Below are positions 161 to 43,249 of a DNA stretch of 64,000 bases, piece after piece. Under the pieces are notes generated by a model. It was not told the DNA's origin. It did no database searches and saw nothing but the letters and a program-made list of their open reading frames with translations. This DNA comes from Betaproteobacteria bacterium (GTDB lineage: Bacteria > Pseudomonadota > Gammaproteobacteria > Burkholderiales > Burkholderiaceae_D): the NCBI GenBank assembly GCA_025356395.1, contig JANXTA010000114.1, positions 1-64,000 of the forward strand. Direction: 5' to 3'. Every line of letters starts with the position of its first letter. The first letter of the stretch is position 1. Made by a program: the position numbers and the translations under genes.

Positions 161-2815
161 TTGACCCACCCGAACACCGAACGGCCCACCGCGGTCCCGG
201 GCGCGATGCGCCGCTGGATCGCCGCGTCCACAACGGTCAGCGCGACGCATCCGCTCGTCTGCGTCGTCATCTCCGTACTGCTCGCCATCGCGGCCGTGAC
301 CTTCGTCGTGCGCAACATCGCGATCGATACCGACAGCGCCAAGCTGATCTCGGCCGACGTGCCGTGGCGTCAGCGCAGCGCGGTCTTCGATGCGGCGTTC
401 CCGCAGAAGACCGACCTGATCGCGGTCGTCATCGACGGCGCGACCCCCGAGATCGCGGAGCGGGCGGCCGCCACGTTGTCGGAGCGGATCGCCGCCCGCA
501 CCGACTTGCTGCATCATGTGCGGCGCCCCGATGGCGGCGTGTTCTTCGATCGCAACGGACTGCTTTTCCTCAACAAGGACGAGGTCGCGAAGACCACCGA
601 ACAGCTGGTCGCGACGCAGCCCGTGATCGGCACGCTCGCGGTCGACCCGACCGTGCGCGGCCTGATGGACACCCTGCAGCTCGCGCTCGAAGGCGTGAAG
701 CAGGGCGAGACGACCCTCGACGTCCTCGCGCCGGGCCTGAGCGCGCTCGCGACAACGCTCGAAGGGGTCGAGGCCGACCAGCCGGTGCCGCTGTCGTGGC
801 GCACGATGCTGGGTAGTCGTGCGCCCGACCCCCGCGAGCTGCGGCGCTTCGTCCTCGCGCAACCGGTGCTCGATTTCTCCGCGTTGCAGCCGGGGGCCAC
901 CGCCACCGCGTTCATCCGCGAGACCGCGCAGGCCGCGGGACTCGATGCCGCCCACGGCGTGCGCGTGCGCCTGACCGGCAACGTCCCGATGGCCGACGAG
1001 GAGTTCGTCACGCTAGAGGAACATGCCGGCCGCAACGCGACCGTCGCCGTTGTCGCGCTGCTCGCGATGCTGTGGCTGGCGATCCGCTCGATCCGCGCGA
1101 TGCTCGCCATCGTCGTGAGCCTGGTCGTGGGGCTGGTGATCACGGCCGCGATCGGGCTGGCGATCTACGGTGCGCTGAACCTGATCTCGGTCGCGTTCGC
1201 GGTGCTGTTCGTCGGACTCGGCGTCGACTTCGGCATCCAGTACGCGGTCTCGTATCGCGCCAACGCGCATCAGGAAGTCGATGGGATAGCGGCCTTGCGT
1301 CGCGCGTCGCTGGAGGTCGGTTCGTCGCTGCTGCTGGCCGCCGTCGCCATCGCCGCGGGCTTCTTCGCGTTCGAGCCGACCGACTATCGCGGCGTGTCCG
1401 AGCTCGGCGTCATCGCTGGTATCGGAATGGTCATCGCCTTCGTCTCCAGCGTCACGCTGCTGCCCGCGTTGCTGAAGCTGATGCGGGTCGGCGGCTCTTC
1501 GGGCGAGATGGGCTTCAGGTCGCTGGCCGGCATCGATCGCTTCCTGTTGGCGCGCCGTCGCTTCGTGCTGACGGCGGCCGGTGCGGTGGCCATCGTCAGT
1601 CTCGCGCTGCTGCCCTGGGTACGCTTCGACTTCAATCCGCTGAACCTTCGCAGCCCGACCAGCGAAGCGGTCGCAACCATCCTCGACCTGTCGCGCAACC
1701 CGCAGACCACGCCGAACACGATCGATGTCCTCGCGCCGTCGCTCGACGCGGCGAAGACGCTCGCGACGAAGCTGTCCGCGCTGCCCGAAGTGTCGCAGGC
1801 GCTGACGCTCGCGAGCTTCATCCCGGACGACCAGGACGCGAAGCTGGCGATCATCGGCGACGCCGCGTCGTTGCTGGACCCGACGCTCAATCCGACGGCG
1901 GTCAAGCCGGTGCCGAGCGATGCCGCGACCGCACGGTCGATGCGCGATGGAGCAGCTGCTCTCGTGCAGGCCGCGGAAAAGGATCCCGGCAACGCGGCCG
2001 CCGCAAATGCGGCGCGGGTCGCGAAAGCGCTGGTGGCGATTGCAGACGGTCCGCCTGCAGGACGCGAGGCACTCGACGACGCGTTGATCCCAGGTCTGCG
2101 GACGACGCTGACGCAGCTGCGGGCCTTGCTGCTTGCGGCACCCGTTTCACTGGCCACGCTGCCCGCCGATTTCAAGGCCGACTGGCTCGCGAGCGACGGT
2201 CGTGCGCGCGTCGAGGTCTACCCGAAAGGAACATCGGAGAAGGCCGCCGACGAGGACGACCTGCTGAAAAGCTTCATCGCGGCGGTCCGTACCGTCGCGC
2301 CCGAGGCGACCGGCACGCCGGTCTCGATCCAGGAGTCGGCCGGGACCATCGTGCACGCCTTCATTCAGGCCGGCGTATGGGCCTTGATCGCCATCACGCT
2401 GCTGCTGGTCCTCGTGCTGAGACGCACGCGCGACGTGCTGATCACGCTGGCATCGCTGCTGCTCGGCGGCCTCGTCACCCTCGCCCTCTGTGTCCTGCTG
2501 CGCATCCCGCTCAACTACGAGAACATCATCGCGCTGCCGCTGCTGTTCGGCATCGGCGTCGCATTCAACATCTATTTCGTGATCGCGTGGCGGCAAGGCG
2601 TGGGCAACCTGCTGCAGACCAGTCTGGCGCGTGCCGTGATCTTCAGTGCGCTGACTACCGCGACGGCGTTCGGCAGCCTCTGGCTGTCGAGTCATCCGGG
2701 GACCGCGAGCATGGGCAAGCTGCTGGCGCTGTCGCTCGCCTGCACGCTGGCTGCGGCACTGCTCGTGCTGCCCGCGTTGCTCGGGCCCGTGCCGCGCGAG
2801 AAAAGCGCGCGATGA
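161..2815 (+). CDS. hpnN: HpnN-like MMPL/RND family lipid (hopanoid) transporter
   Basis: 884 aa ORF with two RND-type TM blocks. IDTDSAKLISADVPWRQR...DAAFPQKTDLIAVVIDGATPE and VRRPDGGVFFDRNGLLFL resemble the HpnN family. TTG at 161 or ATG at 206 are candidate starts. Confidence 0.8.
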   Translation: MTHPNTERPTAVPGAMRRWIAASTTVSATHPLVCVVISVLLAIAAVTFVVRNIAIDTDSAKLISADVPWRQRSAVFDAAFPQKTDLIAVVIDGATPEIAERAAATLSERIAARTDLLHHVRRPDGGVFFDRNGLLFLNKDEVAKTTEQLVATQPVIGTLAVDPTVRGLMDTLQLALEGVKQGETTLDVLAPGLSALATTLEGVEADQPVPLSWRTMLGSRAPDPRELRRFVLAQPVLDFSALQPGATATAFIRETAQAAGLDAAHGVRVRLTGNVPMADEEFVTLEEHAGRNATVAVVALLAMLWLAIRSIRAMLAIVVSLVVGLVITAAIGLAIYGALNLISVAFAVLFVGLGVDFGIQYAVSYRANAHQEVDGIAALRRASLEVGSSLLLAAVAIAAGFFAFEPTDYRGVSELGVIAGIGMVIAFVSSVTLLPALLKLMRVGGSSGEMGFRSLAGIDRFLLARRRFVLTAAGAVAIVSLALLPWVRFDFNPLNLRSPTSEAVATILDLSRNPQTTPNTIDVLAPSLDAAKTLATKLSALPEVSQALTLASFIPDDQDAKLAIIGDAASLLDPTLNPTAVKPVPSDAATARSMRDGAAALVQAAEKDPGNAAAANAARVAKALVAIADGPPAGREALDDALIPGLRTTLTQLRALLLAAPVSLATLPADFKADWLASDGRARVEVYPKGTSEKAADEDDLLKSFIAAVRTVAPEATGTPVSIQESAGTIVHAFIQAGVWALIAITLLLVLVLRRTRDVLITLASLLLGGLVTLALCVLLRIPLNYENIIALPLLFGIGVAFNIYFVIAWRQGVGNLLQTSLARAVIFSALTTATAFGSLWLSSHPGTASMGKLLALSLACTLAAALLVLPALLGPVPREKSAR

Positions 2816-2823
2816 CCGGGGAG

Positions 2824-2843
2824 CGCAAAATCTTGATTTTGCG
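2824..2843. terminator. Perfect 9-bp hairpin cgcaaaatc-tt-gattttgcg, possible terminator or attenuator
   Basis: Direct inverted repeat just after the hpnN stop. Confidence 0.4.
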
Positions 2844-2878
2844 GGTACGTTCCGGCCTGCCTGTCTTTTCATGACCCG

Positions 2879-3503
2879 ATGATTCTGTCCGCTGCCCCCG
2901 CACCTCCCCGCACGTGGGACGGGCGCCTCGCCTGATGGCTCGTCACGCCGCTGCGCGACACGGCGATCACGCCGAACCACCTGACCACGCTGCGACTCGC
3001 GATCGGCCTCGCAGGCGCGGCATGCCTCGCGCAAGGAGGTTATGCGGCCGCCAACGTCGGTGCGCTACCGATCGCGCTGTCGAACTTCGTCGATCACACC
3101 GATGGCGAGCTGGCTCGCATCAGCGGCAAGGCCAGCCGCTTCGGGCGCTCCTACGATCTGGCCTGCGATTCACTCGTCACGGTCCTGCTGTTCGCGTGCA
3201 TGGGCGCAGGCATCACCGCCACCACGCCCATCTCGCCGGTCGCGCTGGGACTGCTCGCAGGCATCGCCGTGGCGTTGATCTTCTTCCTGCGCATGCGCAT
3301 CGAGGCGATGGCAGGCAAGGTCGAGGTGACGCATTCGCTCGCAGCAGGCCGAGACCGAGGACGTGCTCTATCTGTTGCCGCTCGTGACCCTCTTCAGCGT
3401 CGAAGGACCGTTCCTGATCGTCGCGTCGATCGGGGCCCCGCTGTTCGCGCTGTGGGTGCTGTTCGACTATCGAAAGGTCGGCCTCGCCGAGACCACCCGA
3501 TGA
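2879..3503 (+). pseudogene. CDP-alcohol phosphatidyltransferase family protein, apparently disrupted
   Basis: DGELARISGKASRFGRSYDLACD fits the CDP-OH-P-transferase motif DGxxAR(x8)GxxxD(x3)D. In-frame TGA at 2933-2935 and a +1 shift near 3320-3345, after which ETEDVLYLLPLVTLF...FDYRKVGLAETTR* continues in the next frame. Confidence 0.8.
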
Positions 3504-4231
3504 CCACGGACACCGACGTGGAGTTTCCTCTCGAAGGCCTCGATCGCCAGGCGTTGCGGACCGACTTCGTCCGACAAGGTGCCTTCCTCGCGCTCGACGA
3601 TCTCCTGCCCGCGGATGTCACCGTGCAGCTCGCGCACAGTGCGCACGCCTTGCTCGGAGAGGTCAATCGCAACTACCTGCCGGGACACAAGAAGGGTGGC
3701 AGCGTCAGTCGCCACACCATCGACAAGCCCGCGCCGGGAATCGCGCGCCTGTATCGATCACAGGCATTGATCGGCTTGCTCGAAGAAGTCAGCGGCGACC
3801 GCCTGCTGCCGTGTCCACCCGACGATCTGCATGGGTACGCGCTGTACTACTACACCCGTCCTGGCGACCGCATCGGCTGGCACTACGACACGTCGTACTA
3901 CGACGGCCGCCGCTACACGCTGCTGCTCGGCGTGATGGACGAGTCGTCGTGCCGGCTGGACTACGAGCTGCACACGCGCGAACCCGGCGCGACCGTCGCC
4001 ACGGGCTCGCTGCAGATCAAGCCGGGTGGCATCGTGTTCTTCGACGGCGACAAGCTGCGTCATCGCATCACCCCGCTCGGCGAACACGAGATGCGCGTGT
4101 CGCTGACCTTCGAGTACGTCACCGATCCGGGCATGCGCCCATGGTTGCGGCTGTTCTCGAACCTGAAGGGCGCCTTCGGCTACTTCGGCTTCCAGCAGCT
4201 TTTCCGTGGTCGAGCGCAGAGCGACGCATGA
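3500..4231 (+). CDS. 2OG-Fe(II) dioxygenase superfamily protein
   Basis: ATGA overlap with the preceding gene. HxD (WHYDTS), distal His (KLRHRITPL) and Arg (MRVSLTFEY) in a DSBH-like arrangement. Confidence 0.75.
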   Translation: MTTDTDVEFPLEGLDRQALRTDFVRQGAFLALDDLLPADVTVQLAHSAHALLGEVNRNYLPGHKKGGSVSRHTIDKPAPGIARLYRSQALIGLLEEVSGDRLLPCPPDDLHGYALYYYTRPGDRIGWHYDTSYYDGRRYTLLLGVMDESSCRLDYELHTREPGATVATGSLQIKPGGIVFFDGDKLRHRITPLGEHEMRVSLTFEYVTDPGMRPWLRLFSNLKGAFGYFGFQQLFRGRAQSDA

Positions 4232-5220
4232 CTCGGGCCGCCCTGATCCTGCTGACGATCGGCATGGCGCTGTTCGTCGCGCTGCTCGCCTGGCACGGCT
4301 TCGGCTCGGTGGCCGCGACGCTGGCCGCAGCGGGCTGGGGTCTGGTCGTCGTGACGCTGTTCCATCTGTTGCCGCTGGGCATCGATGCCGCGGCGATCGC
4401 GGTGCTGTTCAAGCGGCCGACGAGAGAAGGCACGAGCCGCAACGTGCTGCTTGCCCGCTGGGCCGGCGAGTCGGTCAACAGCCTGGTGCCGGCCGGCCAG
4501 ATCGGCGGTCCGGTGCTGATGGCCCGCCATCTCGCACAACATGGCATGCCGATGCCCGAGGCCGCCGCCGCGATCACGGTCAGCACGACGATGCAGGCGC
4601 TCGCGCAGATCCTCTTCGCGCTGTTCGGCGTCGGCCTGTTCGCGTTCCACGCGGCCAGCGGCACGCTGACCGCGTTGCGCGTGCCGCTGCTGGCCGGCAC
4701 CGCGCTGCTATCGGTGATCGTCATCGCCTTCTATCGCACGCAGCGGCGCGGCATGTTCGCGAATGGTATGCGGCTGCTCGTGAAGGTCTTCGGCACGCAT
4801 CGTTCGTCGACCCTCGCATCGCAAGCCGAAGCGATCGATGCGGCGGTCCACGGTCTCTACGGTGCGTGTCGCAAGCTGCTCGCGACGCTCGGGCTCAGCC
4901 TGGTCGGCTGGCTGGTCGGCACCGGCGAGGTGTGGCTCGCGCTGCAGTTCCTCGGGCATCCGGTCGACTGGGTCGATGCGTTGCTGCTTGAGAGCGTGGG
5001 CCAGGCGATCCGCGGTGCGGCGTTCGCGATCCCCGGCTCGCTCGGCGTGCAGGAGAGTGGCTACCTGCTGCTCGCGCCGCTGGTCGGGCTGCCGCCCGAG
5101 ACCGCGCTGGCACTGTCGCTCGCCAAGCGGGCGCGCGAGATCGCCCTCGGCCTGCCAGGCATCGTCTACCTGCATTTCAGCGAACGAAGCTGGCTGCGTC
5201 GGCGTCCGGTGACCGTCTGA
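4228..5220 (+). CDS. HpnL-like / lysylphosphatidylglycerol synthase-TM (flippase-like) membrane protein
   Basis: Multi-TM protein with GESVNSLVPAGQIGGPVLMARHL; ATGA overlap with the upstream gene. Confidence 0.75.
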   Translation: MTRAALILLTIGMALFVALLAWHGFGSVAATLAAAGWGLVVVTLFHLLPLGIDAAAIAVLFKRPTREGTSRNVLLARWAGESVNSLVPAGQIGGPVLMARHLAQHGMPMPEAAAAITVSTTMQALAQILFALFGVGLFAFHAASGTLTALRVPLLAGTALLSVIVIAFYRTQRRGMFANGMRLLVKVFGTHRSSTLASQAEAIDAAVHGLYGACRKLLATLGLSLVGWLVGTGEVWLALQFLGHPVDWVDALLLESVGQAIRGAAFAIPGSLGVQESGYLLLAPLVGLPPETALALSLAKRAREIALGLPGIVYLHFSERSWLRRRPVTV

Positions 5221-5224
5221 TTCC

Positions 5225-5983
5225 ATGCGCGCGATCATCCTCGCCGCGGGTCGCGGCATGCGACTGCAACAGGGCGATGCCGAACGCTTCCCCAAGTGCC
5301 TGTTGCGCTTCGACGGCGTGACGCTGCTCGAACGTCATCTGCGACTGCTCGATGCGGTCGGCATCGACGAGGTCGTGCTCGCGCTCGGCTGGCAGCCCGG
5401 GCTGGTCGAAGCCGAACTGACCCGTATCGGAGCGCGCGTCGAGATCGTGGTCAATCCCGGCTACGACCTCGGCAGCGTGCTGACGGTGCACACGACGGCC
5501 GATGCGTTGACGCGAGGCGGAGACGTTCTGTTGATGGACGCCGACGTGCTCTACGACGAGCGCATCGTCGAAGCCCTGGTGGAGGGCAGGCATGCGGACC
5601 GCTTGCTGATCGATCGCGCCTTCGTCCCCGGCGACGAGCCGGTCAAGGTGTGCGTGAAGGACGGCGTCGCAGTCGAATTCCGCAAGCAGGTCGCACCCGG
5701 CCTCGACTACGACACGATCGGCGAGTCGGTCGGCTTCTTCCGCTTCACCGAAGGCACGGCGAGACGCTTCACCGAGATCGTCGCCGGCTACGTCGACAGC
5801 GGACGCGCGAATCAACCGCACGAAGAGGCGATCCGCGACCTGCTGCTCGAGGGCGACCATCCTCTCGAGATCGGCGACGTCACCGGCGCCCCCTGGATCG
5901 AGATCGATTTCCTGGGGGACATCGCCCTGGCCACCCATGAAATTCTGCCGCAGTTGCTGCGGCTCGCAGGAGCACTGCGATGA
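5225..5983 (+). CDS. Sugar/choline-phosphate-type nucleotidyltransferase (candidate phosphonate cytidylyltransferase, PntC-like)
   Basis: N-terminal MRAIILAAGRGMRLQ...FPKCLLRFDG signature of NTP transferases; position directly before PEP mutase. Confidence 0.75.
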   Translation: MRAIILAAGRGMRLQQGDAERFPKCLLRFDGVTLLERHLRLLDAVGIDEVVLALGWQPGLVEAELTRIGARVEIVVNPGYDLGSVLTVHTTADALTRGGDVLLMDADVLYDERIVEALVEGRHADRLLIDRAFVPGDEPVKVCVKDGVAVEFRKQVAPGLDYDTIGESVGFFRFTEGTARRFTEIVAGYVDSGRANQPHEEAIRDLLLEGDHPLEIGDVTGAPWIEIDFLGDIALATHEILPQLLRLAGALR

Positions 5984-7660
5984 ATGCAAGAGACCCTTCC
6001 TACGTGCCGCTGTCGCGCAGCGCGCAACTGCGGCAGATTGCTCAACGACCAGCTCGAGTTCGTGATGGAAGCGCACAACGGCCTGTCCGCGCGCCTCGTG
6101 CGCGAGGCCGGCTTCAAGGGCATCTGGGCCTCGGGCCTCGCGATCTCCGCGCAGTACGGCGTGCGCGACAACAACGAGGCGAGCTGGACCCAGATCGTCG
6201 ACACGCTCGAGTTCATGGCGGACGCGAGCGACCTGCCGATCCTGCTCGACGGCGACACCGGCTACGGCGACTTCAACAACCCGCGGCGCCTGGTACGGAA
6301 GCTCGAGCAGCGCGGCATCGCCGGCGTCTGCATCGAGGACAAGCAGTTTCCGAAGACCAACAGCTTCATCGGCGGCGAGCGCCAGCCGCTGGCGGACATC
6401 GACGAGTTCAGAGGCAAGATCAAGGCGGGCAAGGACTCGCAGCACGACGAGCACTTCTCGATCGTGGCGCGGGTCGAGGCGCTGATCGCCGGCTGGGGTA
6501 TGGACGAGGCGTTGAAGCGTGCCGAGGCCTATCGCCTCGCCGGCGCCGACGCGATCCTGATCCACAGCAAGCTGTCGAAGCCCGATGAGATCCTGACCTT
6601 CGCGCGCGAATGGGCCGGGCGCGGCCCGCTGGTGATCGTGCCGACCAAGTACTACAGCACGCCGACGGACGTGTTCCGCAAGGCCGGCATCAGCCTCGTG
6701 ATCTGGGCCAACCACCTGATCCGCGCGGCCGCGTCGTCGGTGCAGGCGGTGGCGAAGGAGATCCATGACAGCCAGACGCTGGTCGCGGTCGAGGACCGCA
6801 TCGCGCGGGTCGACGAGATCTTCCGGCTGCAGGATGCCGACGAGTATTCGGCCGCCGAAGAGATCTACCTGTCGACCTCCCGGTGGTCGAACGCCGCGGT
6901 GGTGCTCGCGGCCAGTCGCGGTGCGGGCCTCGAGGCCATCACCGCCGATCGCCCGAAGGTCATGCTGCCGATCGCCGGCAAGCCGTTGCTGCGCTGGCTC
7001 GTCGATGCGTTCAAGAAGCAGGGCATCAACGACACCGCCGTGGTCGGCGGCTACCGCGCAGACGCCATCGACACGGCGGGGATCAAGGTCGTTGTCAACC
7101 AGCGGCATGCCGAGACCGGCGAGCTGGCCTCGCTGGCTTGCGCGGTCGATGGCTTGCAGGGTGACACCGTGATCTCTTACGGCGACCTGCTGTTTCGCAA
7201 CTACATCCTGCGCGACCTGGTCGCGAGCGAAGCCGCGTTCAGCGTCGTGGTCGACGCGTCGCAGACGCAGCCGGTCAACGCGAGCGTCAGCGACTTCGCC
7301 TGGTGTTCGGGCGCGGACGATCGCGACCTGTTCGGCCGCAAGGTCGTGCTGCGGCGGGTCTCGAACGACTCTGCGCATGAAGACCACGCGCCGCAAGGCC
7401 GATGGATCGGTCTCCTCAACGTGCGTGGCGCCGGTCGAGAGCGGTTGCAGAAGATGGTGGCCACCCTTCGTATGCGTCCCGACTTCGACGCGCTCGGTCT
7501 GCCGGCGCTGCTCAACGCGCTGATCGACGCCGGGGAAGAGATCGAGGTGCAGTACGTGTACGGCCACTGGCGCGGCGTCAACGACCTCGAGGACTTCCGT
7601 CGCGCCGGCGACTTCGCGCATGCGCAGGCGCCGTTCGCAATCCGCACCGTGGCCGGCTGA
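5980..7660 (+). CDS. Phosphoenolpyruvate mutase fused to a nucleotidyltransferase domain
   Basis: [12 protein letters not shown] carries the EDKx(5)NS PEP-mutase motif; C-terminal [22 protein letters not shown] nucleotidyltransferase domain. ATGA start at 5980 reads [19 protein letters not shown], then the reading frame shifts near 6039. The continuous ORF starts at 5984. Confidence 0.85.
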
Positions 7661-8820
7661 TGATCGAGGCAGCCCAGTTCGTCGAGGCCGCACGCGCGCG
7701 CGGCTTCGACTGGTACGCAGGCGTTCCCTGCTCGTACCTCACGCCGTTCATCAACTACCTCGTGCAGGATCCGACGCTGCACTATGTGTCCGCGGCGAAC
7801 GAAGGCGGTGCCGTCGCGCTGATCGCCGGCGTCACGCTCGGGGGTCGACGCGGCATCGCGATGATGCAGAACTCGGGCCTCGGGAATGCCGTGAGCCCCC
7901 TCACGTCGCTGACCTGGACCTTCCGCCTGCCGCAACTGCTGATCGTCACGTGGCGCGGCCAACCCGGCGTGCCCGACGAACCGCAACACGCGCTGATGGG
8001 CCCGATCACGCCGGCGATGCTGGACACGATGGAGATCCCGTGGGAGATGTTTCCCACGGATGCCGATGCGATCGGTCCGGCCCTCGATCGTGCGACGGCA
8101 CACATTGAGGCGACCGGTCGACCGTATGCGCTCGTGATGCAGAAGGGCAGCGTTGCCTCGTATGCATTGAAGGACGGCGCCGGCCGGCTGTCGCCGGTAT
8201 CGCGCCCGGCGCCGTCGAGCCCTATCGAGGCCGATACACGACCTTCGCGTCACGAGGCGCTGCTGCGCGTGGTGACGAATACACCGGTCGACTCCACGGT
8301 CGTGTTCGCTTCGACCGGCTTCTGCGGTCGCGAGCTGTATGCGATCGATGACCGGCCCGACCAGCTCTACATGGTCGGCTCGATGGGTTGCGTCACGCCG
8401 TTCGCGCTCGGCTTCGCTCTCGCGCGGCCCGATCTGCAGGTCCTCACCATCGACGGCGATGGCGCCGCGCTGATGCGCATGGGCGCCTTCGCAACGCTGG
8501 GGGCCTACGGTCCTCCGAACCTCACGCACGTGCTGCTCGACAACGGCGCGCACGAGTCGACCGGTGGCCAGGCGACGGTCTCGCGCGGCGTGTCGTTCGC
8601 GGCCGTCGCGTCGGCGTGCGGCTATGCGGCGGCCGTGGAAGTCGTCACGCTCGAGATGCTCGACGACTTCCTCGTCGGCAAGACTTCCACGGGCGTGCGC
8701 TTCGCACGCGTGTCGATCCGCACCGGAACGCCGGACGACCTGCCTCGGCCCACCATGCCGCCGGTCGACGTGAAGCTTCGCTTGATGACGCGCATCAGTT
8801 CGCCACGGAGCGCTGCCTGA
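7660..8820 (+). CDS. Phosphonopyruvate decarboxylase (ThDP-dependent)
   Basis: FDWYAGVPCSYLTPFINYL, NEGGAVALIAG, MMQNSGLGNAVSPLTSL, TIDGDGAALMRMGAFATLG; ATGA overlaps on both sides. Confidence 0.92.
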   Translation: MIEAAQFVEAARARGFDWYAGVPCSYLTPFINYLVQDPTLHYVSAANEGGAVALIAGVTLGGRRGIAMMQNSGLGNAVSPLTSLTWTFRLPQLLIVTWRGQPGVPDEPQHALMGPITPAMLDTMEIPWEMFPTDADAIGPALDRATAHIEATGRPYALVMQKGSVASYALKDGAGRLSPVSRPAPSSPIEADTRPSRHEALLRVVTNTPVDSTVVFASTGFCGRELYAIDDRPDQLYMVGSMGCVTPFALGFALARPDLQVLTIDGDGAALMRMGAFATLGAYGPPNLTHVLLDNGAHESTGGQATVSRGVSFAAVASACGYAAAVEVVTLEMLDDFLVGKTSTGVRFARVSIRTGTPDDLPRPTMPPVDVKLRLMTRISSPRSAA

Positions 8821-9905
8821 TGCTGCTGCTCAATCCCGGCCCCGTGACCCTGACGGAACGCGTGCGTCACAGCCTGCTGCAGCCCGATCTCTGTGATTGC
8901 GAGAGCGAGTTCTACGACCTGCAGGACGAAGCGAGAGAGCGCCTGCTCGAGGTGTATGCGCTCGATCCGACCCAGTGGTCCGCGGTATTGATCACCGGCT
9001 CGGGCACGGCCGCGGTCGAAAGCATGATCGCGGCGCTGGTGCCCGACGGCGGCAAGCTGCTGATCGTCGAAAACGGCATGTATGGCGAACGCATCGCGCA
9101 GATCGCCGGCCAGTACCGCATCGCGCACGAGGGCGCGCGCCACGATTGGATGGATGCCGTCGATCTGCAACGCATCGCCGCCCTGCTGGATGCGGACGGG
9201 ACCTTCACGCATGTCGCGGTGATCCATCACGAGACCACGACCGGTCGGCTCAACGACCTCGAGGGACTGGCCGCGATCTGTCGCGAGCGCGGCGTGCGCC
9301 TGCTGATCAATAGTGTGAGCAGCTTCGGGGCGGAGGCGATCGCGTTCGATGACGACTGCGTCGACGCGGTGGCGGGCGCGGCCAACAAGTGCCTGCACGG
9401 CGTGCCGGGCGCCTCGTTCGTCATCGTCCGGCGTTCGGCACTCCCGCAGGCGACGAGCCGCACCTACTACCTCGACCTCGTGCGTCTCGCGCGCCTGCAG
9501 GACCAGCGCAATACGCCGTTCACGGCTGCGGTCCACGTGTATTACGCGATGGTCGAGGCGCTGCGCGAGTTCGAGGAAGAGGGCGGTCGTGAAGCTCGGC
9601 ATGCGCGCTATGCAGCATTGGCAGAGCAGGCGCGGGCCGGTCTTGCAGAGCGTGGCATCCACGGCGTCTTGCCCGCCGGGCAGTCATCGGTGGTGCTGCG
9701 CGCGTACTCTCTGCCTCCGGGTCTAGCCTATCTGCGACTGCATGACGGCCTCAAGTCGCGTGGCTTCGTGATTTACGCAGGGCAGGGCGGCCTCTCCGCC
9801 ACGCTGTTCCGCATCTCGACGATGGACGCCGTGACCGGCGCCGACGTCGAGCGACTGCTGCAGGGCTTCACCGAGCTGCTGCCGGCCGAATCCGCACATC
9901 CATGA
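8820..9905 (+). CDS. 2-aminoethylphosphonate aminotransferase (class V PLP)
   Basis: LLLNPGPVTLTERVRHSLLQPDLCDCESEF; AANKCLHGVPGASFVIV around the PLP lysine. Confidence 0.92.
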   Translation: MLLLNPGPVTLTERVRHSLLQPDLCDCESEFYDLQDEARERLLEVYALDPTQWSAVLITGSGTAAVESMIAALVPDGGKLLIVENGMYGERIAQIAGQYRIAHEGARHDWMDAVDLQRIAALLDADGTFTHVAVIHHETTTGRLNDLEGLAAICRERGVRLLINSVSSFGAEAIAFDDDCVDAVAGAANKCLHGVPGASFVIVRRSALPQATSRTYYLDLVRLARLQDQRNTPFTAAVHVYYAMVEALREFEEEGGREARHARYAALAEQARAGLAERGIHGVLPAGQSSVVLRAYSLPPGLAYLRLHDGLKSRGFVIYAGQGGLSATLFRISTMDAVTGADVERLLQGFTELLPAESAHP

Positions 9906-9948
9906 CATCCCGGTCGACCGTCCGTCGGCCTTCATCGAAAGCAACCCT

Positions 9949-10716
9949 ATGTTCGTTCGAGGCCTGACGCTGTTCGCCCTGTTCGCGGCACTCGCCATCG
10001 GCGGCTGTGCGACCGTTCCGTCGGGGAGCGCTGCCGATCCGTCGGAGAACGATCCCTTCGAGTCCTTCAACCGCGGCGTCTTCGCGGTCAACCAGTCGGT
10101 CGATCGCGCGGTCATCAAGCCGGTCGCCGAGACCTATCGCTCGACGCTGCCGGAGGGCGTGCGCGACGGCATCCGTTCATTCGTCGACAACCTGACGGAG
10201 CCGCTAGTCTTTGCCAACGACCTGCTGCAGGGCCGCGGTGAGGCCGCCGGCATCACGGGGCGCCGCTTCCTGATCAACTCCACCTGGGGCATCGGCGGAC
10301 TGTTCGACAAGGCGGGCGAACTCGGCATGCCGCGCCAGTCGGGCGACTTCGGACAGACGCTGTTTTCGTGGGGCGTCGTCGATGGGCCTTACCTGATGCT
10401 GCCGTTGTTCGGTCCCTCCAACATCCGCGATGCGATCGGCATGGGTGTGGACTCGTATGCGTCCCCGATCGGCCACGTCGGGTCTGAATCGACCCGCGGG
10501 AAGGTCACGGTATCGGTGGGTGTCTCGGGTGGCATCGACGAGCGGTCGCGCAACATCGAGACGCTGGAGGGCATCGAGGCAAGTTCGATCGACTTCTATG
10601 CCTACCTGCGCAGTGTCTGGCGCCAGAACCGCCAGGCGACCTTGCGCGAAGCGCGCGAGAGCGCGCCGGACGATGACCTCAGCGACCCGGGCGCGGCGAA
10701 GGCGCCCAAGCCCTAG
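9949..10716 (+). CDS. mlaA: MlaA/VacJ family outer-membrane lipoprotein
   Basis: Lipobox ...AIGGCATV; DPFESFNRGVFAVNQSVDRAVIKPVAETYRSTLP. Confidence 0.9.
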   Translation: MFVRGLTLFALFAALAIGGCATVPSGSAADPSENDPFESFNRGVFAVNQSVDRAVIKPVAETYRSTLPEGVRDGIRSFVDNLTEPLVFANDLLQGRGEAAGITGRRFLINSTWGIGGLFDKAGELGMPRQSGDFGQTLFSWGVVDGPYLMLPLFGPSNIRDAIGMGVDSYASPIGHVGSESTRGKVTVSVGVSGGIDERSRNIETLEGIEASSIDFYAYLRSVWRQNRQATLREARESAPDDDLSDPGAAKAPKP

Positions 10717-11357
10717 GAAACCAGCAGCTTGTCGGCGCGCTGACGGAGGCTGTCGATCAGCGCGGCCGGACCACCGCTGCGGAGCAGGGCGCCGAACTCC
10801 GAGCGCCGCGTCGCAAGTTCGCTGATCGTGCCCTTCAGGTACACGTCAATCGCCTTCCAGCCGTCGTCGACGGGGTGGACCAGATAGTTGAGCGCGATGG
10901 GTTCGCCCTTCGGCCGCACCAGAGTGCTGTGCACGACGCGATTGGGCCCGCGCTCCTCGGCGGCAGGCTCGACCTCGAAGTGCTCGCCCGAATAGCCGTC
11001 GAAACGGTTGGCATAGGTCGCGACGGTGAGACGGCCGAACTGTTCGAGCAACGCCTTCTGGTCATCCACCGCGATCGTCGTCCAGCTCGGGCCGACCGCG
11101 ATCCGCGTCATCGCCGGCAGGTCGAAGGTCGCGCGTACCACGGGCTCGAGCTTCTCGTAGCGCGCACGGACCGGCATCGATTTCGCCTGCTTCATCGTGT
11201 CGAGCAGCACATCGTAGAAACCACGGATGCGCGTGACGGCCGGATCGGCTTCGGCTGCCGTAGCCGAACCGATCGCGGCAGACACGATGCCGAGCAAGAA
11301 CCACAGCATCAGTGCACGACGTCGGGTACCGGAAACCATCATCTTGTGTCCTTGCAT
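10713..11357 (-). CDS. MlaC/HpnM (toluene tolerance Ttg2D) family phospholipid-binding protein
   Basis: Signal peptide; ATFDLPAMTRIAVG, RFDGYSGEHFEV, DDGWKAIDVYLKG... Confidence 0.85.
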   Translation of the reverse strand: MQGHKMMVSGTRRRALMLWFLLGIVSAAIGSATAAEADPAVTRIRGFYDVLLDTMKQAKSMPVRARYEKLEPVVRATFDLPAMTRIAVGPSWTTIAVDDQKALLEQFGRLTVATYANRFDGYSGEHFEVEPAAEERGPNRVVHSTLVRPKGEPIALNYLVHPVDDGWKAIDVYLKGTISELATRRSEFGALLRSGGPAALIDSLRQRADKLLVS

Positions 11358-11398
11358 TCTGGGGGCCTGTGAGAGGCGGCCCGCTGTTGATCGTTCCT

Positions 11399-22103: not shown

Positions 22104-22544
22104 ATGGCGACGCCCACATCACCCGCAAAGATGACCATCGGCCGGCTCGCCAGAGCCGCGGACGTGGGCATCGAGACGATCCGCTACTACCAGCGTCTGG
22201 CGCTGTTGCCCACGCCTGAGCCGACGGAAGGCGGCGCCTTCCGGCACTACCCGCTGGCGCTGGTCGACCGGATCCGCTTCATCAAGCGCTCGCAGGACTT
22301 GGGGTTTTCGCTGGGTCAGATTTCGGCGTTGCTCAAGCTCGAAGATGGAAGCAACCGCAAGGCCATCCGCTCCGTCGCGAATGCCCATCTCGCCCAGATC
22401 GCCACGCGCATCGAAGACCTGCAACGCCTACAGCGCGTGCTGACGCATCTCGTGCACGAGTGCGAAGCGACGGGACGCACGAAGCCTTGCCCGATCATCG
22501 CGGCCCTGTCCGGTGAGCACGACGCTTGCCATCCGCATCAATGA
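22104..22544 (+). CDS. MerR family regulator (mercury-type scaffold)
   Basis: MTIGRLARAADVGIETIRYYQRLALL...GFSLGQISALLKLEDG...CEATGRTKPCPIIAAL. Confidence 0.88.
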   Translation: MATPTSPAKMTIGRLARAADVGIETIRYYQRLALLPTPEPTEGGAFRHYPLALVDRIRFIKRSQDLGFSLGQISALLKLEDGSNRKAIRSVANAHLAQIATRIEDLQRLQRVLTHLVHECEATGRTKPCPIIAALSGEHDACHPHQ

Positions 22545-22936
22545 CTTTCGTGCTGCGTCGCTGGTCGACTTTCCTGTTGCTGCTTGCGATCCCGCTGCGC
22601 GTCTACGCGGCAGCGGCGATGATGTTCTGCGGCCAGCCGGGTGAAGCGACACCGCCCCCGCAGACCTCGATGCATGAACAGATGCAGAGTCATCCCGATC
22701 CGGTCGGCGGGATGGAGCATGCCGAGCATCATCAAGGCCACGGCACCGGCTCGGAGCACGGACAGGATCACGGCTCATGCTCCGCGTGCTGTTGCGCCGG
22801 CATGATCGCCACTGCGACCCACGACTGGCAGGCACAGCCGTTCGCCAGACCTGCGCCGCCTCGTTTCGTCGCCATGGTGGTACCCCCCACGGTACCGCGG
22901 CGCCTCGAGCGACCTCCTCGAATCTTCCTCGCCTGA
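22541..22936 (+). CDS. Small His/Met/Cys-rich putative periplasmic metal-associated protein
   Basis: Signal-like N-terminus; HEQMQSHPDPVGGMEHAEHHQGHGTGSEHGQDHGSCSACCCAGMI; ATGA overlap with merR; start of copper operon. Confidence 0.65.
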   Translation: MTFVLRRWSTFLLLLAIPLRVYAAAAMMFCGQPGEATPPPQTSMHEQMQSHPDPVGGMEHAEHHQGHGTGSEHGQDHGSCSACCCAGMIATATHDWQAQPFARPAPPRFVAMVVPPTVPRRLERPPRIFLA

Positions 22937-23068
22937 GCAGCCCGGCCGTCCATCGGCTGCGGTCTGTCATATCGAGCCGCGCTCCTGCGCGGCGCGTGGG
23001 CACTCGCCGCCGTCTTACTGCAAGCCGGTGCGTGGCCGCGACTTCGAAATACCTTTTGCGAGGACTTC

Positions 23069-24478
23069 ATGGTTCTGCATTCTTCGAGACCGTCACGGCG
23101 CTGGGCGCTGGGCGCGGTCGTATTGAGTTCCCTGTTCAGCGGTTGCGCGACCGTAGCGACGGACCAGGGTGGCCGCAAGGTGGCCGACCTGACTCGGCAG
23201 CGTACCCAAGTCGACACGGCATCGAGCCAGGGCCGCTGGCCCCGCGATGCGGAGGACGAGTCGGTGGTGCGGAAGTCGGTCGACGCTGCGCTCGACCAGG
23301 CCCTGGGCGCGGACGACGCCGTGCGCATCGCGTTGATGAACAACCCGGGTCTCCAGGCCGAGTACGCGCAGCTCGGGTTCGCCGTGGCCGACCTGATCGC
23401 CGCGGGTCTTCCCGCCAATCCCGGATTCAGCTTCGCGAAGCTGCGCTACGGCAGTGAACGAGAGATCGATCGCACCTTCACGTTCGACGTGATCGGCCTG
23501 ATCACGGCGCCGTTGCGCTACCGCGTCGCTTCCCGGCAATTCGAATCGACGCAATACGCGGTCGCGGAGCGGGCCGTGCGGGTGGCCGGCGACACGCGAA
23601 AGACTTGGGTGAGGGCGGTCGCCGCACAGCAATCGCTGCTGTACTTCGTGCAGGCACGCGAAGCCGCGGAGGCCGGCGCCGAGCTCGGGCAGCGCATGCA
23701 GAAGGCGGGCAACTGGCCGCGGCTGACCGCGTTGCGCGAGCAGGCGTTCCATAGCGACGCGCTCAACGGTTTCGCACGGGCACGCAGCACGGCGCTGTCG
23801 ACGCGTGAAGAACTGGCACGACTGATGGGCATCGACGATCCGTCGCGCATACAGTTGCCCGAGCGACTGCCCGATCTTCCGGCGGCCCTTCGCGACACGA
23901 CGGAGGCCGAGCGCGTGGCGCTCGACGAACGCCTCGACGTGCGGTCCGCGAGGCTGCGCCTGGACGCGACGGCGCGGGACCTCGGGCTCACGCAGGTCAC
24001 GCGCTTCGTCAATGTGCTCGACCTCGGATACCAGAACAACTCGTTCACCGAGAACGGCGTCGGCGGCCCCAAGCAGCAGGGGTTCCAGGTTTCCGTCGAG
24101 ATCCCGCTGTTCGATTTCGGCACGGCCCGCGTGACCCGCGCCGAAGCCATCTATCGACAGTCGGCGGCGTTGCTGCAGCAGACCGTGATCGGTGCCAGGT
24201 CCGACGTGCGCCTGCGGGCTGCAGCGGCGCGCGACTCGCTGGAGATCGCGCGTCACTACCGAACGGAAGTCGTTCCGCTGCGTAAGGCGATCAGCGACGA
24301 GATGACCCTTCGCTACAACGGCATGCTCAATTCGGTATTCGAGTTGCTGGCCGATTCGCGCGAGCAGATGAACGCGGTCGCGGCCACGATCGATGCGGAG
24401 CGCGACTACTGGCTGGCGGATGCCGACCTGCAGTTCGCCCTGACCACGGGTTCGACCTTGAAGGAGAACGCACGATGA
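23069..24478 (+). CDS. TolC-family outer-membrane protein of copper operon
   Basis: Lipobox LFSGCATV; TolC-like coiled-coil repeats; overlaps MCO start (ATGA). Confidence 0.8.
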   Translation: MVLHSSRPSRRWALGAVVLSSLFSGCATVATDQGGRKVADLTRQRTQVDTASSQGRWPRDAEDESVVRKSVDAALDQALGADDAVRIALMNNPGLQAEYAQLGFAVADLIAAGLPANPGFSFAKLRYGSEREIDRTFTFDVIGLITAPLRYRVASRQFESTQYAVAERAVRVAGDTRKTWVRAVAAQQSLLYFVQAREAAEAGAELGQRMQKAGNWPRLTALREQAFHSDALNGFARARSTALSTREELARLMGIDDPSRIQLPERLPDLPAALRDTTEAERVALDERLDVRSARLRLDATARDLGLTQVTRFVNVLDLGYQNNSFTENGVGGPKQQGFQVSVEIPLFDFGTARVTRAEAIYRQSAALLQQTVIGARSDVRLRAAAARDSLEIARHYRTEVVPLRKAISDEMTLRYNGMLNSVFELLADSREQMNAVAATIDAERDYWLADADLQFALTTGSTLKENAR

Positions 24479-25905
24479 ACCGCCGCCGTTTCATTTCTCG
24501 CGCGGCCATGGGTGGCCTCGCGGTGACAGCGGTCAGTGCGGCCCAGATCTCGCGCGCCGCGCAGGCCGGGGTCCCTGAAGCCGCGACGCAATCGTCGCCG
24601 CTCACGCAAGGGCCGGTCGGCCCTTCAAGCGGACGGCCCTACGACCCGGTCGTGACGCTCAACGGCTGGACCGCGCCCTTCCGCATGAAGGACGGCGTCA
24701 AGGAATTCCATCTCGTCGCCGAGCCGGTCGTCCGTGAGTTCGCGCCGGGCATGAAGGCGCGCCTGTGGGGCTACAACGGCCAGAGCCCCGGACCCACCAT
24801 CGAGGTGGTCGAAGGCGACCGCGTGCGGCTCTTCGTGACCAACAAGCTGCCCGAATACACGACGATCCACTGGCACGGCCAGCGGCTACCCAATGGCATG
24901 GACGGGGTGGGCGGTCTCAATCAGCTGCACATCCAGCCGGGCCAGACCTACGTCTACGAGTTCGTTGCGCAGCGGCCCGGCACCTTCATGTATCACCCGC
25001 ACGCCGACGAGATGACGCAAATGGCGATGGGGATGATGGGCTTCTGGGTCACGCATCCAAAGAATCCGCGAGCGACGCCCGGCTACGCATCGGTCGACCG
25101 TGACTTCGTCTTCCTCCTCAACGCATACGACATCGACCCGGGCAGCATGGTGCCGAAGGTCAGCACGATGCTCGACTTCAACCTGTGGAACTTCAACAGC
25201 CGCGTGTGGCCGGGCATCGATCCGATGGTGGTGCGCAGGAATGACCGCGTACGGATCCGCATCGGCAACCTGACGATGACCAACCATCCGATCCATATCC
25301 ACGGACACGAGTTCCACGTGGCCGGGACGGACGGCGGCTGGACCAACCCGTCGTCGCGCTGGCCGGAAGTGTCCGTCGACATCGCGGTGGGACAGATGCG
25401 CGCACTCGAGTTCGTGGCCGACGCGCCGGGCGACTGGGCGTTTCATTGCCACAAGGCGCACCACACCATGAATGCGATGGGGCATACGGTGCCGACCATG
25501 ATCGGCGTCGATCAGCGTGGCGTCGTGGAGAAGATCGCCAAGCTCGTTCCCGACTACATGGTGATGGGCGAAAACGGCGGGGCCATGGTGATGTCTCTGG
25601 GTGGTCAGTCGATGCAGATGGAGATGCCTCTGCCCGACAACACGTTGCCGATGATGACCGGCAACGGGCCGTTCGGCCCGATCGAGATGGGCGGCATGTT
25701 CACCACCGTCAAGGTCCGCGACGGCCTGGCGCGCAACGACTATCGAGACCCAGGCTGGTACCAGCATCCGCCGGGAACGGTCGCGCACCTCGTGACCGGG
25801 TCCGAGATGGCGGACATGCCGATGGCGACCGAAGCCCGCGACCCGTCACCGCCCGGCGGCATGGACATGAAGGTCAGGAAGCCCACCGATCATGGCGGCC
25901 ACTGA
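24475..25905 (+). CDS. Multicopper oxidase (copper resistance)
   Basis: Tat signal NRRRFISRAAMGGLAV; TTIHWHGQRLPNGMDG, HPHADEMTQM, HPIHIHGHEFHV, WAFHCHKAHHTMNAMGHTVPTM. Confidence 0.93.
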   Translation: MNRRRFISRAAMGGLAVTAVSAAQISRAAQAGVPEAATQSSPLTQGPVGPSSGRPYDPVVTLNGWTAPFRMKDGVKEFHLVAEPVVREFAPGMKARLWGYNGQSPGPTIEVVEGDRVRLFVTNKLPEYTTIHWHGQRLPNGMDGVGGLNQLHIQPGQTYVYEFVAQRPGTFMYHPHADEMTQMAMGMMGFWVTHPKNPRATPGYASVDRDFVFLLNAYDIDPGSMVPKVSTMLDFNLWNFNSRVWPGIDPMVVRRNDRVRIRIGNLTMTNHPIHIHGHEFHVAGTDGGWTNPSSRWPEVSVDIAVGQMRALEFVADAPGDWAFHCHKAHHTMNAMGHTVPTMIGVDQRGVVEKIAKLVPDYMVMGENGGAMVMSLGGQSMQMEMPLPDNTLPMMTGNGPFGPIEMGGMFTTVKVRDGLARNDYRDPGWYQHPPGTVAHLVTGSEMADMPMATEARDPSPPGGMDMKVRKPTDHGGH

Positions 25906-25950
25906 ACGGATCGTCCGCGACAAACTCGATTTCTTTGACTGGAAAAAATT

Positions 25951-26322
25951 ATGCAAACAAGGACCTCGGTGATCACCGTTTTCGTACTGCTCGTCTCGAG
26001 CGGTGCTGGCGCTCAAGGCACGGCCGGCCCCTCGCCGATGGAAGGCATGGACATGTCCATGCCGGGCGCCTTGAAGATGGAGCAGGAGGGGACAACGGTC
26101 GAGATGACCGAGGGCGAAGTCCGCAAGCTCGACAAGGAGCAGGGCTTGGTGACCCTCAGGCACGGCGACATCAGGATCCTCGGGCTGCCGGGGATGACGA
26201 TGGTCTTTCACACGACCGACAAGGCGATGCTCGACCCGGTGAAGCAGGGCGACAAGGTCAGATTCACCGCCGACATGATGAACAACGAAGTCATGGTGAC
26301 CCGGATCGAAGTGACGCAATAG
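25951..26322 (+). CDS. CusF-like periplasmic copper-binding protein
   Basis: EGEVRKLDKEQGLVTLRHGDIRILGLPGMTMVFHTTDKAML...GDKVRFTAD. Confidence 0.88.
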   Translation: MQTRTSVITVFVLLVSSGAGAQGTAGPSPMEGMDMSMPGALKMEQEGTTVEMTEGEVRKLDKEQGLVTLRHGDIRILGLPGMTMVFHTTDKAMLDPVKQGDKVRFTADMMNNEVMVTRIEVTQ

Positions 26323-42370: not shown

Positions 42371-43231
42371 ATGCACGCTTCCCTCAATGTCCGTGCCGGC
42401 GTGGTGTCGGCGCTGATCCTGCTCGCGATCCTCTTCGTCTGGCACTTCGCGACGGTGTCGGTCAAGGCCGACACCAGCACGGCCGGCATGACGCCCGAGC
42501 AGATCGAGTACCAAAAAATGATGGGCAAGGACGTGTCGTCGACCAAGACCACCGGCTTCCCGACGCCGCTGGACATCGGCGCGACGATCGTCAAGCAGCT
42601 CTCCGATCCGTTCTACGACCGCGGCCCGAACGACAAGGGCATCGCGTTGCAGCTCGCGTACTCACTCGCTCGCGTCGCGCTGGGCTTCGGCATCGCGATG
42701 CTTGTCGCGATCCCGCTCGGCTTCCTGATCGGCATGTCGCCGCTATTCCGTAAAGCGCTCGATCCATTCATCCAGGTGCTGAAGCCGATCTCGCCGCTCG
42801 CGTGGATGCCGCTCGCGCTGTACACCATCAAGGACTCGGCGATCTCGGGCATCTTCGTGATCTTCATCTGCTCGATCTGGCCGATGCTGATCAACACGGC
42901 GTTCGGCGTGGCGGCCGTGCGACGCGACTGGCTCAACGTCGCGAAGACGCTCGAAGTCCGGCCGCTGAGGCGCGCCTTCCAGGTGATCCTTCCCGCGGCG
43001 GCACCGACCATCGTGACCGGCATGCGCATCTCGATGGGCATCGCGTGGCTGGTGATCGTGGCCGCGGAGATGCTGGTCGGCGGAACGGGCATCGGCTACT
43101 TCGTGTGGAACGAATGGAACAACCTGTCGCTGACCAACGTAATTTTCGCGGTGCTGCTGATCGGGGTGTTCGGGATGCTGCTGGACCTGATGTTCGCGCG
43201 GTTCCAGAAGTGGGTGACCTATGTGGAGTGA
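42371..43231 (+). CDS. ABC transporter permease (NrtB/CynB-type)
   Basis: LIGMSPLFRKALDPFIQVLKPISPLAWMPLALY; GMRISMGIAWLVIVAAEMLVGGTGIGYFVWNEWN. Confidence 0.9.
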   Translation: MHASLNVRAGVVSALILLAILFVWHFATVSVKADTSTAGMTPEQIEYQKMMGKDVSSTKTTGFPTPLDIGATIVKQLSDPFYDRGPNDKGIALQLAYSLARVALGFGIAMLVAIPLGFLIGMSPLFRKALDPFIQVLKPISPLAWMPLALYTIKDSAISGIFVIFICSIWPMLINTAFGVAAVRRDWLNVAKTLEVRPLRRAFQVILPAAAPTIVTGMRISMGIAWLVIVAAEMLVGGTGIGYFVWNEWNNLSLTNVIFAVLLIGVFGMLLDLMFARFQKWVTYVE

Positions 43232-43249
43232 TCGCGTGAAGGCGACGTC

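What the first reader, a model, noticed from the sequence alone, without database searches (positions are those of the whole stretch)
161..11357. Candidate phosphonolipid synthesis-and-trafficking locus: 2-AEP pathway fused into a hopanoid/Mla-type transport neighbourhood
Seen: seven genes from 2879 to 9905, most with ATGA stop/start overlaps (3500, 4228, 5980, 7660, 8820). They encode CDP-alcohol phosphotransferase, 2OG-Fe(II) oxygenase, HpnL-like flippase, nucleotidyltransferase, PEP mutase/nucleotidyltransferase fusion, phosphonopyruvate decarboxylase and AEP transaminase. They are flanked by an HpnN-like RND, MlaA and MlaC/HpnM. Known: PEP mutase, Ppd and AEP transaminase make 2-aminoethylphosphonate; PntC-type enzymes make CMP-phosphonates; CDP-alcohol phosphotransferases transfer headgroups from CDP/CMP-alcohols to lipids; HpnN and Mla proteins move lipids between membranes. 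Inference: the locus makes a phosphonate-headgroup lipid (possibly hydroxylated by the oxygenase) and delivers it to the outer membrane.
Basis: partly seen in the sequence, partly recalled or inferred. Interest (0 to 1): 0.85.

Follow-up and report, generated by a model that had tools for sequence, protein, structure and literature searches.

The report
Phosphonate-lipid gene cassette in hopanoid locus
A conserved set of seven bacterial genes looks built to make membrane lipids with a carbon-phosphorus head group and flip them across the membrane; in this bacterium it sits inside the genes for hopanoids (bacterial sterol-like lipids), and every genome checked that carries it also has the gene for making hopanoids.

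Summary
The gene content is real. HMM scans confirm HpnN, CDP-alcohol phosphotransferase (CDPPT), 2OG-Fe oxygenase, HpnL, nucleotidyltransferase (NTP2), PEP mutase-NTP fusion, phosphonopyruvate decarboxylase, AEP transaminase, MlaA and HpnM. The seven-gene core is conserved in Burkholderia, Cupriavidus, Trinickia and Mycetohabitans, splits into two modules in two Paraburkholderia genomes, and recurs rearranged in two more lineages. NTP2 matches the solved AEP cytidylyltransferase PntC. CDPPT catalytic residues are invariant. The oxygenase keeps a hydroxylase triad. Cassette HpnL is a dedicated paralogue (100/100 support) whose model matches MprF flippases. Best reading: an AEP (probably hydroxy-AEP) phosphonolipid synthesis-and-flipping cassette. 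The HpnN/MlaA/HpnM delivery step is unproven: those genes flank the core only in this genus, although Mycetohabitans rhizoxinica also has the core beside its hopanoid locus. All 8 cassette genera tested carry squalene-hopene cyclase, against 4 of 30 non-cassette relatives: a hopanoid link is likely but unexplained. No chemistry has been shown. New variant of a known kind (Pnt-type phosphonolipid clusters).

The parts
161..2815 (+). HpnN, RND-type hopanoid transporter; the only over-cut-off HpnN of this genome
   Evidence: NF052374 1103.5 bits, TIGR03480 1001 bits; single copy; 73% identical in G001
2879..3503 (+). CDP-alcohol phosphotransferase, first gene of the core cassette; interrupted here (stop 2933-2935, frameshift about 3351-3355)
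   Evidence: PF01066 8e-12; lesions; DxxDGxxAR(8x)GxxxDxxxD invariant in 13 relatives
3500..4231 (+). 2OG-Fe(II) oxygenase, BesD/HalD fold with hydroxylase-type HxD...H triad (H128, D130, H188)
   Evidence: PF23169, conservation, PDB by sequence and by fold
4228..5220 (+). HpnL-family flippase-like membrane protein, cassette-specific paralogue
   Evidence: TIGR03476 334.6 bits, tree, MprF as best fold match
5225..5983 (+). NTP2, PntC-like AEP cytidylyltransferase
   Evidence: best PDB match Tde-PntC 6pd1/6pd2 over full length; GxGxR and PK motifs kept
5980..7660 (+). PEP mutase fused to an NTP-transferase-like domain lacking the signature Arg; frameshift near 6039-6045, long ORF 5984-7660
   Evidence: TIGR02320 381 bits, [10 protein letters not shown] motif, lesion, motif survey, LicC alignment
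7660..8820 (+). phosphonopyruvate decarboxylase
   Evidence: TIGR03297 443.9 bits
8820..9905 (+). 2-aminoethylphosphonate aminotransferase
   Evidence: TIGR03301 381.6 bits
9949..10716 (+). MlaA lipoprotein, flanking the core only in this genus
   Evidence: PF04333 2e-67; 68% identical in G001
10713..11372 (-). HpnM (MlaC-like), divergent from other HpnM (median 28% identity)
   Evidence: TIGR03481 181 bits

Best explanation
A phosphonolipid synthesis-and-flipping cassette. PEP mutase makes phosphonopyruvate, Ppd decarboxylates it, and AEPT aminates the aldehyde to 2-aminoethylphosphonate (AEP). The oxygenase probably hydroxylates AEP to 1-hydroxy-AEP. NTP2 (PntC-like) activates the phosphonate with CTP to CMP-AEP or CMP-hydroxy-AEP. 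The CDP-alcohol phosphotransferase moves the phosphonyl head group onto a lipid alcohol (most likely diacylglycerol) and releases CMP. The HpnL paralogue flips the aminophosphonolipid to the outer leaflet of the inner membrane, as the MprF flippase domain does with lysyl-phosphatidylglycerol. In this genus the cassette sits inside the hopanoid locus between hpnN and mlaA. Shown by sequence: gene content, motifs, conservation, paralogy, linkage. Inferred: every reaction, the head group, the acceptor, the flipping and any outer-membrane delivery.
For: Curated cut-offs passed by PEP mutase, Ppd and AEPT. The core is one unit in 21 of 80 loci and in the annotated M. rhizoxinica plasmid. P. xenovorans and P. 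diazotrophica split it into AEP synthesis (L046, L050) and CDPPT-oxygenase-HpnL-NTP2 (L167, L166), the division expected for making and using the phosphonate. Two divergent rearranged versions keep CDPPT, NTP2 and an HpnL-family gene with the AEP genes (L150, L241). NTP2's best PDB match is T. denticola PntC, whose AEP cytidylyltransferase activity was shown in PMC6697681. The CDPPT motif is invariant and its PDB hits include choline/ethanolamine phosphotransferases. HpnL model: MprF entries at ranks 1, 2 and 4. Hydroxylase triad invariant. HpnL with CDPPT in 8/8 genera vs 1/12 PEP-mutase genera without CDPPT, p=7e-5.
Against: No lipid chemistry. CDPPT is broken and PEP mutase frameshifted in the window itself. 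Closest NCBIfam models for CDPPT are inositol-phosphate lipid synthases that use CDP-lipid donors, all far below cut-off. The MprF fold match is modest (E 0.016-0.15, TMq 0.49-0.57, model pLDDT 72). The oxygenase's nearest solved relatives act on lysine or ornithine, not on phosphonates.
Confidence: 0.68

Rival explanations
1. The AEP head group goes onto a hopanoid (for example bacteriohopanepolyol) or another isoprenoid alcohol, and HpnL, HpnN, HpnM and MlaA then handle that lipid: a phosphono-hopanoid system.
For: Cassette embedded in the hopanoid locus in the window's genus (G001 on one contig; own genome and G002 across contig ends) and next to it in M. rhizoxinica. Squalene-hopene cyclase in 8/8 cassette genera vs 4/30 non-cassette members of the window's family, p=1e-5, or 4/4 lineages, p=0.0015. 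The cassette flippase is a paralogue of hopanoid-locus HpnL. Flanking HpnM and MlaA are unusually divergent.
Against: In most cassette genomes the unit is far from the hopanoid genes. No phosphonohopanoid was found in the papers searched. CDP-alcohol phosphotransferases of this fold are known to use glycerolipid or inositol alcohols. Co-occurrence counts are confounded by phylogeny.
Confidence: 0.14
2. The phosphonate decorates a glycan (LPS or capsule) rather than a lipid.
For: Pnt clusters in T. denticola and A. rimae neighbour LicD or glycosyltransferases and are thought to act on cell-wall glycans (PMC6697681).
Against: The HMM scans of the core found no LicD or glycosyltransferase (annotated genes); a CDP-alcohol phosphotransferase and a flippase-family protein are constant instead.
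Confidence: 0.08
3. The CDP-alcohol phosphotransferase uses CDP-diacylglycerol and attaches a hydroxylated phosphonate or inositol-like alcohol, so NTP2 does not supply its donor.
For: Best NCBIfam hits are archaetidylinositol-phosphate and PI-phosphate synthases.
Against: All such hits are far below cut-off; NTP2 is always present and matches PntC; CEPT1-type enzymes also score; the G060 version lacks the oxygenase that would supply a hydroxyl.
Confidence: 0.06
4. In this strain the cassette is decaying and non-functional (compatible with any of the functional readings above for its relatives).
For: Two lesions in CDPPT and one in PEP mutase.
Against: No lesion seen in the other genes; protein identity of the broken gene to congeners equals that of its neighbours (68-74%), so constraint was not relaxed for long; draft assembly.
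Confidence: 0.3

Closest known systems
Phosphonyl tailoring (Pnt) clusters with PntC cytidylyltransferase (PMC6697681)
   Same: PEP mutase with a fused NTP domain plus a separate PntC-like enzyme, Ppd and AEPT; CMP-phosphonate activation logic
   Different: LicD/glycosyltransferase genes replaced by CDP-alcohol phosphotransferase, HpnL-family flippase and a BesD-like hydroxylase; PntC not fused to AEPT as in T. denticola
1-hydroxy-AEP sphingophosphonolipid of Bdellovibrio (Bacteriovorax) stolpii (Watanabe 2001, cited in PMC8154272 and PMC6148460)
   Same: a hydroxylated AEP lipid head group, the product expected here
Hopanoid locus genes hpnH-ispH-shc-hpnL-hpnM-hpnN-mlaA
   Same: HpnN, HpnM and MlaA around the cassette correspond to the transport genes of such loci
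   Different: cassette lies between hpnN and mlaA; cassette HpnL is a separate paralogue
MprF lysyl-PG synthase/flippase
   Same: LPG_synthase_TM fold, proposed flipping of an amine-bearing lipid
   Different: no synthase domain; about 14-18% identity, modest TM-score
BesD/HalD halogenases and lysine hydroxylases
   Same: same fold family
   Different: HxD triad kept, so a hydroxylase rather than a halogenase; substrate probably a phosphonate
Flavophos cluster of Burkholderia (PMC12871164)
   Same: PEP-mutase-dependent phosphonate cluster in Burkholderia
   Different: no Ppd, different intermediates, soluble antimicrobial product

Membership tests
PEP mutase | EDKxxxxxNS motif and TIGR02320 cut-off | tested here: met
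   [10 protein letters not shown]; 381 bits vs 319.6
AEP pathway | Ppd and AEP transaminase over equivalog cut-offs next to PEP mutase | tested here: met
PntC (AEP cytidylyltransferase) | LicC-like NTP transferase with GxGxR and PK motifs, closest to PntC | tested here: met
   NTP2:
PntC (AEP cytidylyltransferase) | CTP:AEP activity, AEP preferred over phosphocholine | not testable with these tools
   needs enzyme assay
PntC (AEP cytidylyltransferase) | signature Arg in the PEP-mutase-fused NTP domain | tested here: not met
   Arg replaced by G/E/D/A/Q or another residue in every fused domain in which the motif was found, including the window's
CDP-alcohol phosphotransferase | DxxDGxxARx8GxxxDxxxD motif | tested here: met
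   invariant in 13 relatives; present in the window although the frame is interrupted
CDP-alcohol phosphotransferase | intact reading frame in the window | tested here: not met
   stop 2933-2935 and frameshift
2OG-Fe(II) hydroxylase vs BesD-type halogenase | HxD...H facial triad (halogenases lack the Asp) | tested here: met
   H128-Y-D130...H188 invariant
HpnL (TIGR03476) | over family cut-off | tested here: met
   334.6 vs 195.7 bits
HpnL (TIGR03476) | orthologous to hopanoid-locus HpnL | tested here: not met
   cassette copies form one separate group, 100/100
MprF-type flippase | shared transmembrane fold | tested here: inconclusive
   MprF ranks 1, 2 and 4, probability 0.99-1.00, but E 0.016-0.15 and TMq 0.49-0.57
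Hopanoid producer | squalene-hopene cyclase in the genome | tested here: met
   764.5 bits on contig C166

The most novel reading that the evidence does not exclude
The cassette makes a phosphonate-bearing lipid that functions with hopanoids, either with AEP carried on a hopanoid itself or as an obligate partner lipid, so that HpnL paralogues are head-group-specific flippases and, in this genus, HpnN/HpnM/MlaA have been turned to export it. This would give the HpnL family a first function.
Probability: 0.2. Interest if true: 0.85.

Novelty: new variant of a known kind. Interest (0 to 1): 0.6.

Why it matters
Most bacterial phosphonate clusters are predicted to decorate cell surfaces, but the transfer step is largely uncharacterised (PMC6697681), and HpnL has no established function (PMC12583986). 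This cassette names a complete candidate set for synthesis, activation, transfer and flipping, present in culturable laboratory strains such as Paraburkholderia xenovorans LB400 and Mycetohabitans rhizoxinica HKI 454, so a phosphonolipid, the role of an HpnL homologue and the link to hopanoids can all be tested directly.

Tried and rejected
(1) HpnN as a cassette-specific transporter: rejected in the simple form, because each cassette genome tested has one over-cut-off HpnN. (2) Cassette HpnL as the displaced hopanoid HpnL: rejected by the tree and by a second HpnL in the genome. (3) Oxygenase as a halogenase (Pfam HalD name): rejected, Asp of HxD kept. (4) PEP-mutase-fused domain as the active cytidylyltransferase: disfavoured, signature Arg missing. 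(5) First neighbour survey gave 0/80 with HpnN; M. rhizoxinica later showed linkage, missed because its relative's draft contig ends near the cassette, so that zero is a lower bound. (6) Accelerated evolution of HpnN/HpnM/MlaA: the window genus is also more divergent in biosynthetic genes, so only weak support. (7) Compositional evidence for an island: GC is uniform. (8) Rfam: no match in the window. (9) First alignment A1 used wrong frames and was discarded. (10) Paper searches for a Burkholderia phosphonolipid found none; Yu et al. 2013 was not readable.
Full report
OBSERVATION. The window is the first 64 kb of a 106-kb contig of a 4.47-Mb draft genome in 175 contigs. The CDP-alcohol phosphotransferase has an in-frame TGA at 2933-2935 and a frameshift near 3351-3355, while congeners G001 and G002 have one open frame. 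PEP mutase changes frame near 6039-6045, so its conserved N-terminus (from 5980) and its body (ORF 5984-7660) lie in different frames. Identity of the broken CDPPT to its congener (68-74%) is like that of its neighbours, so the lesions are recent or are assembly errors.

WHAT IS CONSERVED. In G001 the order HpnM, MlaA, AEPT, Ppd, PEPM, NTP2, HpnL, oxygenase, CDPPT, HpnN continues into ispH, hpnH and squalene-hopene cyclase. In the window's genome ispH, hpnH and the cyclase begin contig C166 and HpnN begins contig C152, which fits the same layout broken at a contig end. Ordinary hopanoid loci in the same family run HpnL, HpnM, HpnN, MlaA with no cassette, so in this genus the cassette lies between HpnN and MlaA. 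A scan of 84,980 genomes with PEP mutase kept the 80 best loci, all Burkholderiaceae. Of these, 21 (Burkholderia, Cupriavidus, Trinickia, Mycetohabitans, two named Paraburkholderia) carry the seven-gene core in the same order; the other 59 carry PEPM-Ppd-AEPT (one cut before AEPT), 8 of them with NTP2, and none has HpnN or MlaA nearby (one weak HpnM-like hit at 28%). In two of the latter that were followed up (P. xenovorans LB400, P. diazotrophica) the missing CDPPT-oxygenase-HpnL-NTP2 block is a separate module elsewhere in the genome. G060 (same family, other genus) has HpnL-CDPPT-PEPM-Ppd-AEPT-NTP2 without oxygenase, and G337 (another family of the order) has oxygenase-NTP2-PEPM-Ppd-AEPT-CDPPT with a convergent HpnL-like gene. 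Across a phylum sample, PEP-mutase loci without a strong CDPPT match lack HpnL, except G1018, which has MlaA and an HpnL nearby (one locus, L276, has a weak 46-bit CDPPT hit and no HpnL). HpnL goes with CDPPT in 8/8 genera against 1/12 (p=7e-5), or 3/3 architectures (p=0.009).

ROLES. NTP2's best solved relative is T. denticola PntC over its full length, an enzyme shown to activate AEP with CTP (PMC6697681). The PEP-mutase-fused NTP domain lacks the GxGxR arginine in every fused domain in which the motif was found, so NTP2 is the likelier cytidylyltransferase. CDPPT keeps the full catalytic motif in 13 relatives and matches AF2299, a CDP-inositol enzyme and choline/ethanolamine phosphotransferases. 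The oxygenase has the BesD/HalD fold but a hydroxylase-type HxD...H triad. [quoted passage not shown] HpnL's AlphaFold model (pLDDT 72) has MprF as its best match (ranks 1, 2 and 4); the statistics are modest.

HPNL IS A DEDICATED PARALOGUE. Twenty-six cassette HpnL sequences form one group at 100/100, apart from hopanoid-locus HpnL. Most cassette genomes carry a second HpnL; the window's own second copy is on contig C99 beside genes that by eye resemble hpnI/hpnK. A 2025 survey states that HpnL's function is not established (PMC12583986).

THE HOPANOID LINK. HpnN is single above cut-off in every cassette genome tested, apart from G002 where it is split over two contigs, and is usually far from the cassette. 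Yet M. rhizoxinica plasmid pBRH01 holds hpnD, shc, hpnA, hpnH, ispH, HpnM and HpnN followed after two hypothetical genes by dxs and the cassette. Squalene-hopene cyclase is present in all cassette genomes tested: 8/8 genera against 4/30 non-cassette members of the window's family (p=1e-5), 4/4 lineages (p=0.0015), within the family alone 2/2 against 4/30 (p=0.03). These tests do not correct for phylogeny, and the large Burkholderiaceae genomes examined all carry the cyclase. In the window's genus HpnM and MlaA are notably divergent from other loci (28% and 36% against 50% and 56% among references), more than SHC (61 against 67) or HpnH (66 against 78), which would fit a changed cargo but is weak evidence.

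ORIGIN. Cassette proteins are about 57-88% identical between the window's genus and Burkholderiaceae, mostly 61-82%, whereas HpnN is about 45% and SHC about 61%; the concatenated tree puts the two sets next to each other on short branches with weak basal support. Horizontal transfer between families is likely; its direction is open. GC content gives no sign of it.

VERDICT. Core reading supported as a prediction: an AEP or hydroxy-AEP phosphonolipid cassette with its own flippase-family protein, a new variant of the Pnt-type cluster. Outer-membrane delivery by HpnN/Mla is unproven. The hopanoid co-occurrence is the most interesting open point.

Noticed in passing
window 6881-7657; L037-L293 PEP-mutase fusions: The NTP-transferase domain fused to PEP mutase lacks the catalytic-signature Arg (LAASRGxGL instead of LAAGxGxRL) in every fused domain with a recognisable motif, in several families; the commonest PEP-mutase fusion domain may therefore not be an active cytidylyltransferase.
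   Followed up: partly
L224 and L222 (NC_014718.1 585000-618000): Mycetohabitans rhizoxinica HKI 454 megaplasmid pBRH01 carries a hopanoid locus, dxs and the phosphonate cassette side by side.
   Followed up: partly
L167 and L046 (P. xenovorans LB400 chromosome 2): Cassette split into two modules about 1.8 Mb apart: AEP synthesis, and activation/transfer/flipping.
   Followed up: yes
L244 (G1018 contig C34 64000-83000): In a distant member of the phylum, PEPM, Ppd and NTP2 lie beside an MlaA gene, with an HpnL-family gene about 4 kb beyond MlaA; no CDP-alcohol phosphotransferase seen there.
   Followed up: partly
L241 9000-9720: The oxygenase of G337's cassette is split over two frames, again a possible lesion or draft error.
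   Followed up: no
window 22104-26322: Run of genes that by eye looks like a copper-resistance cluster (MerR-like regulator, outer-membrane efflux protein, multicopper-oxidase-like proteins); not scanned.
   Followed up: no
window 42371-44125: ABC-type transporter genes of the nitrate/sulfonate/taurine kind by appearance; not scanned.
   Followed up: no
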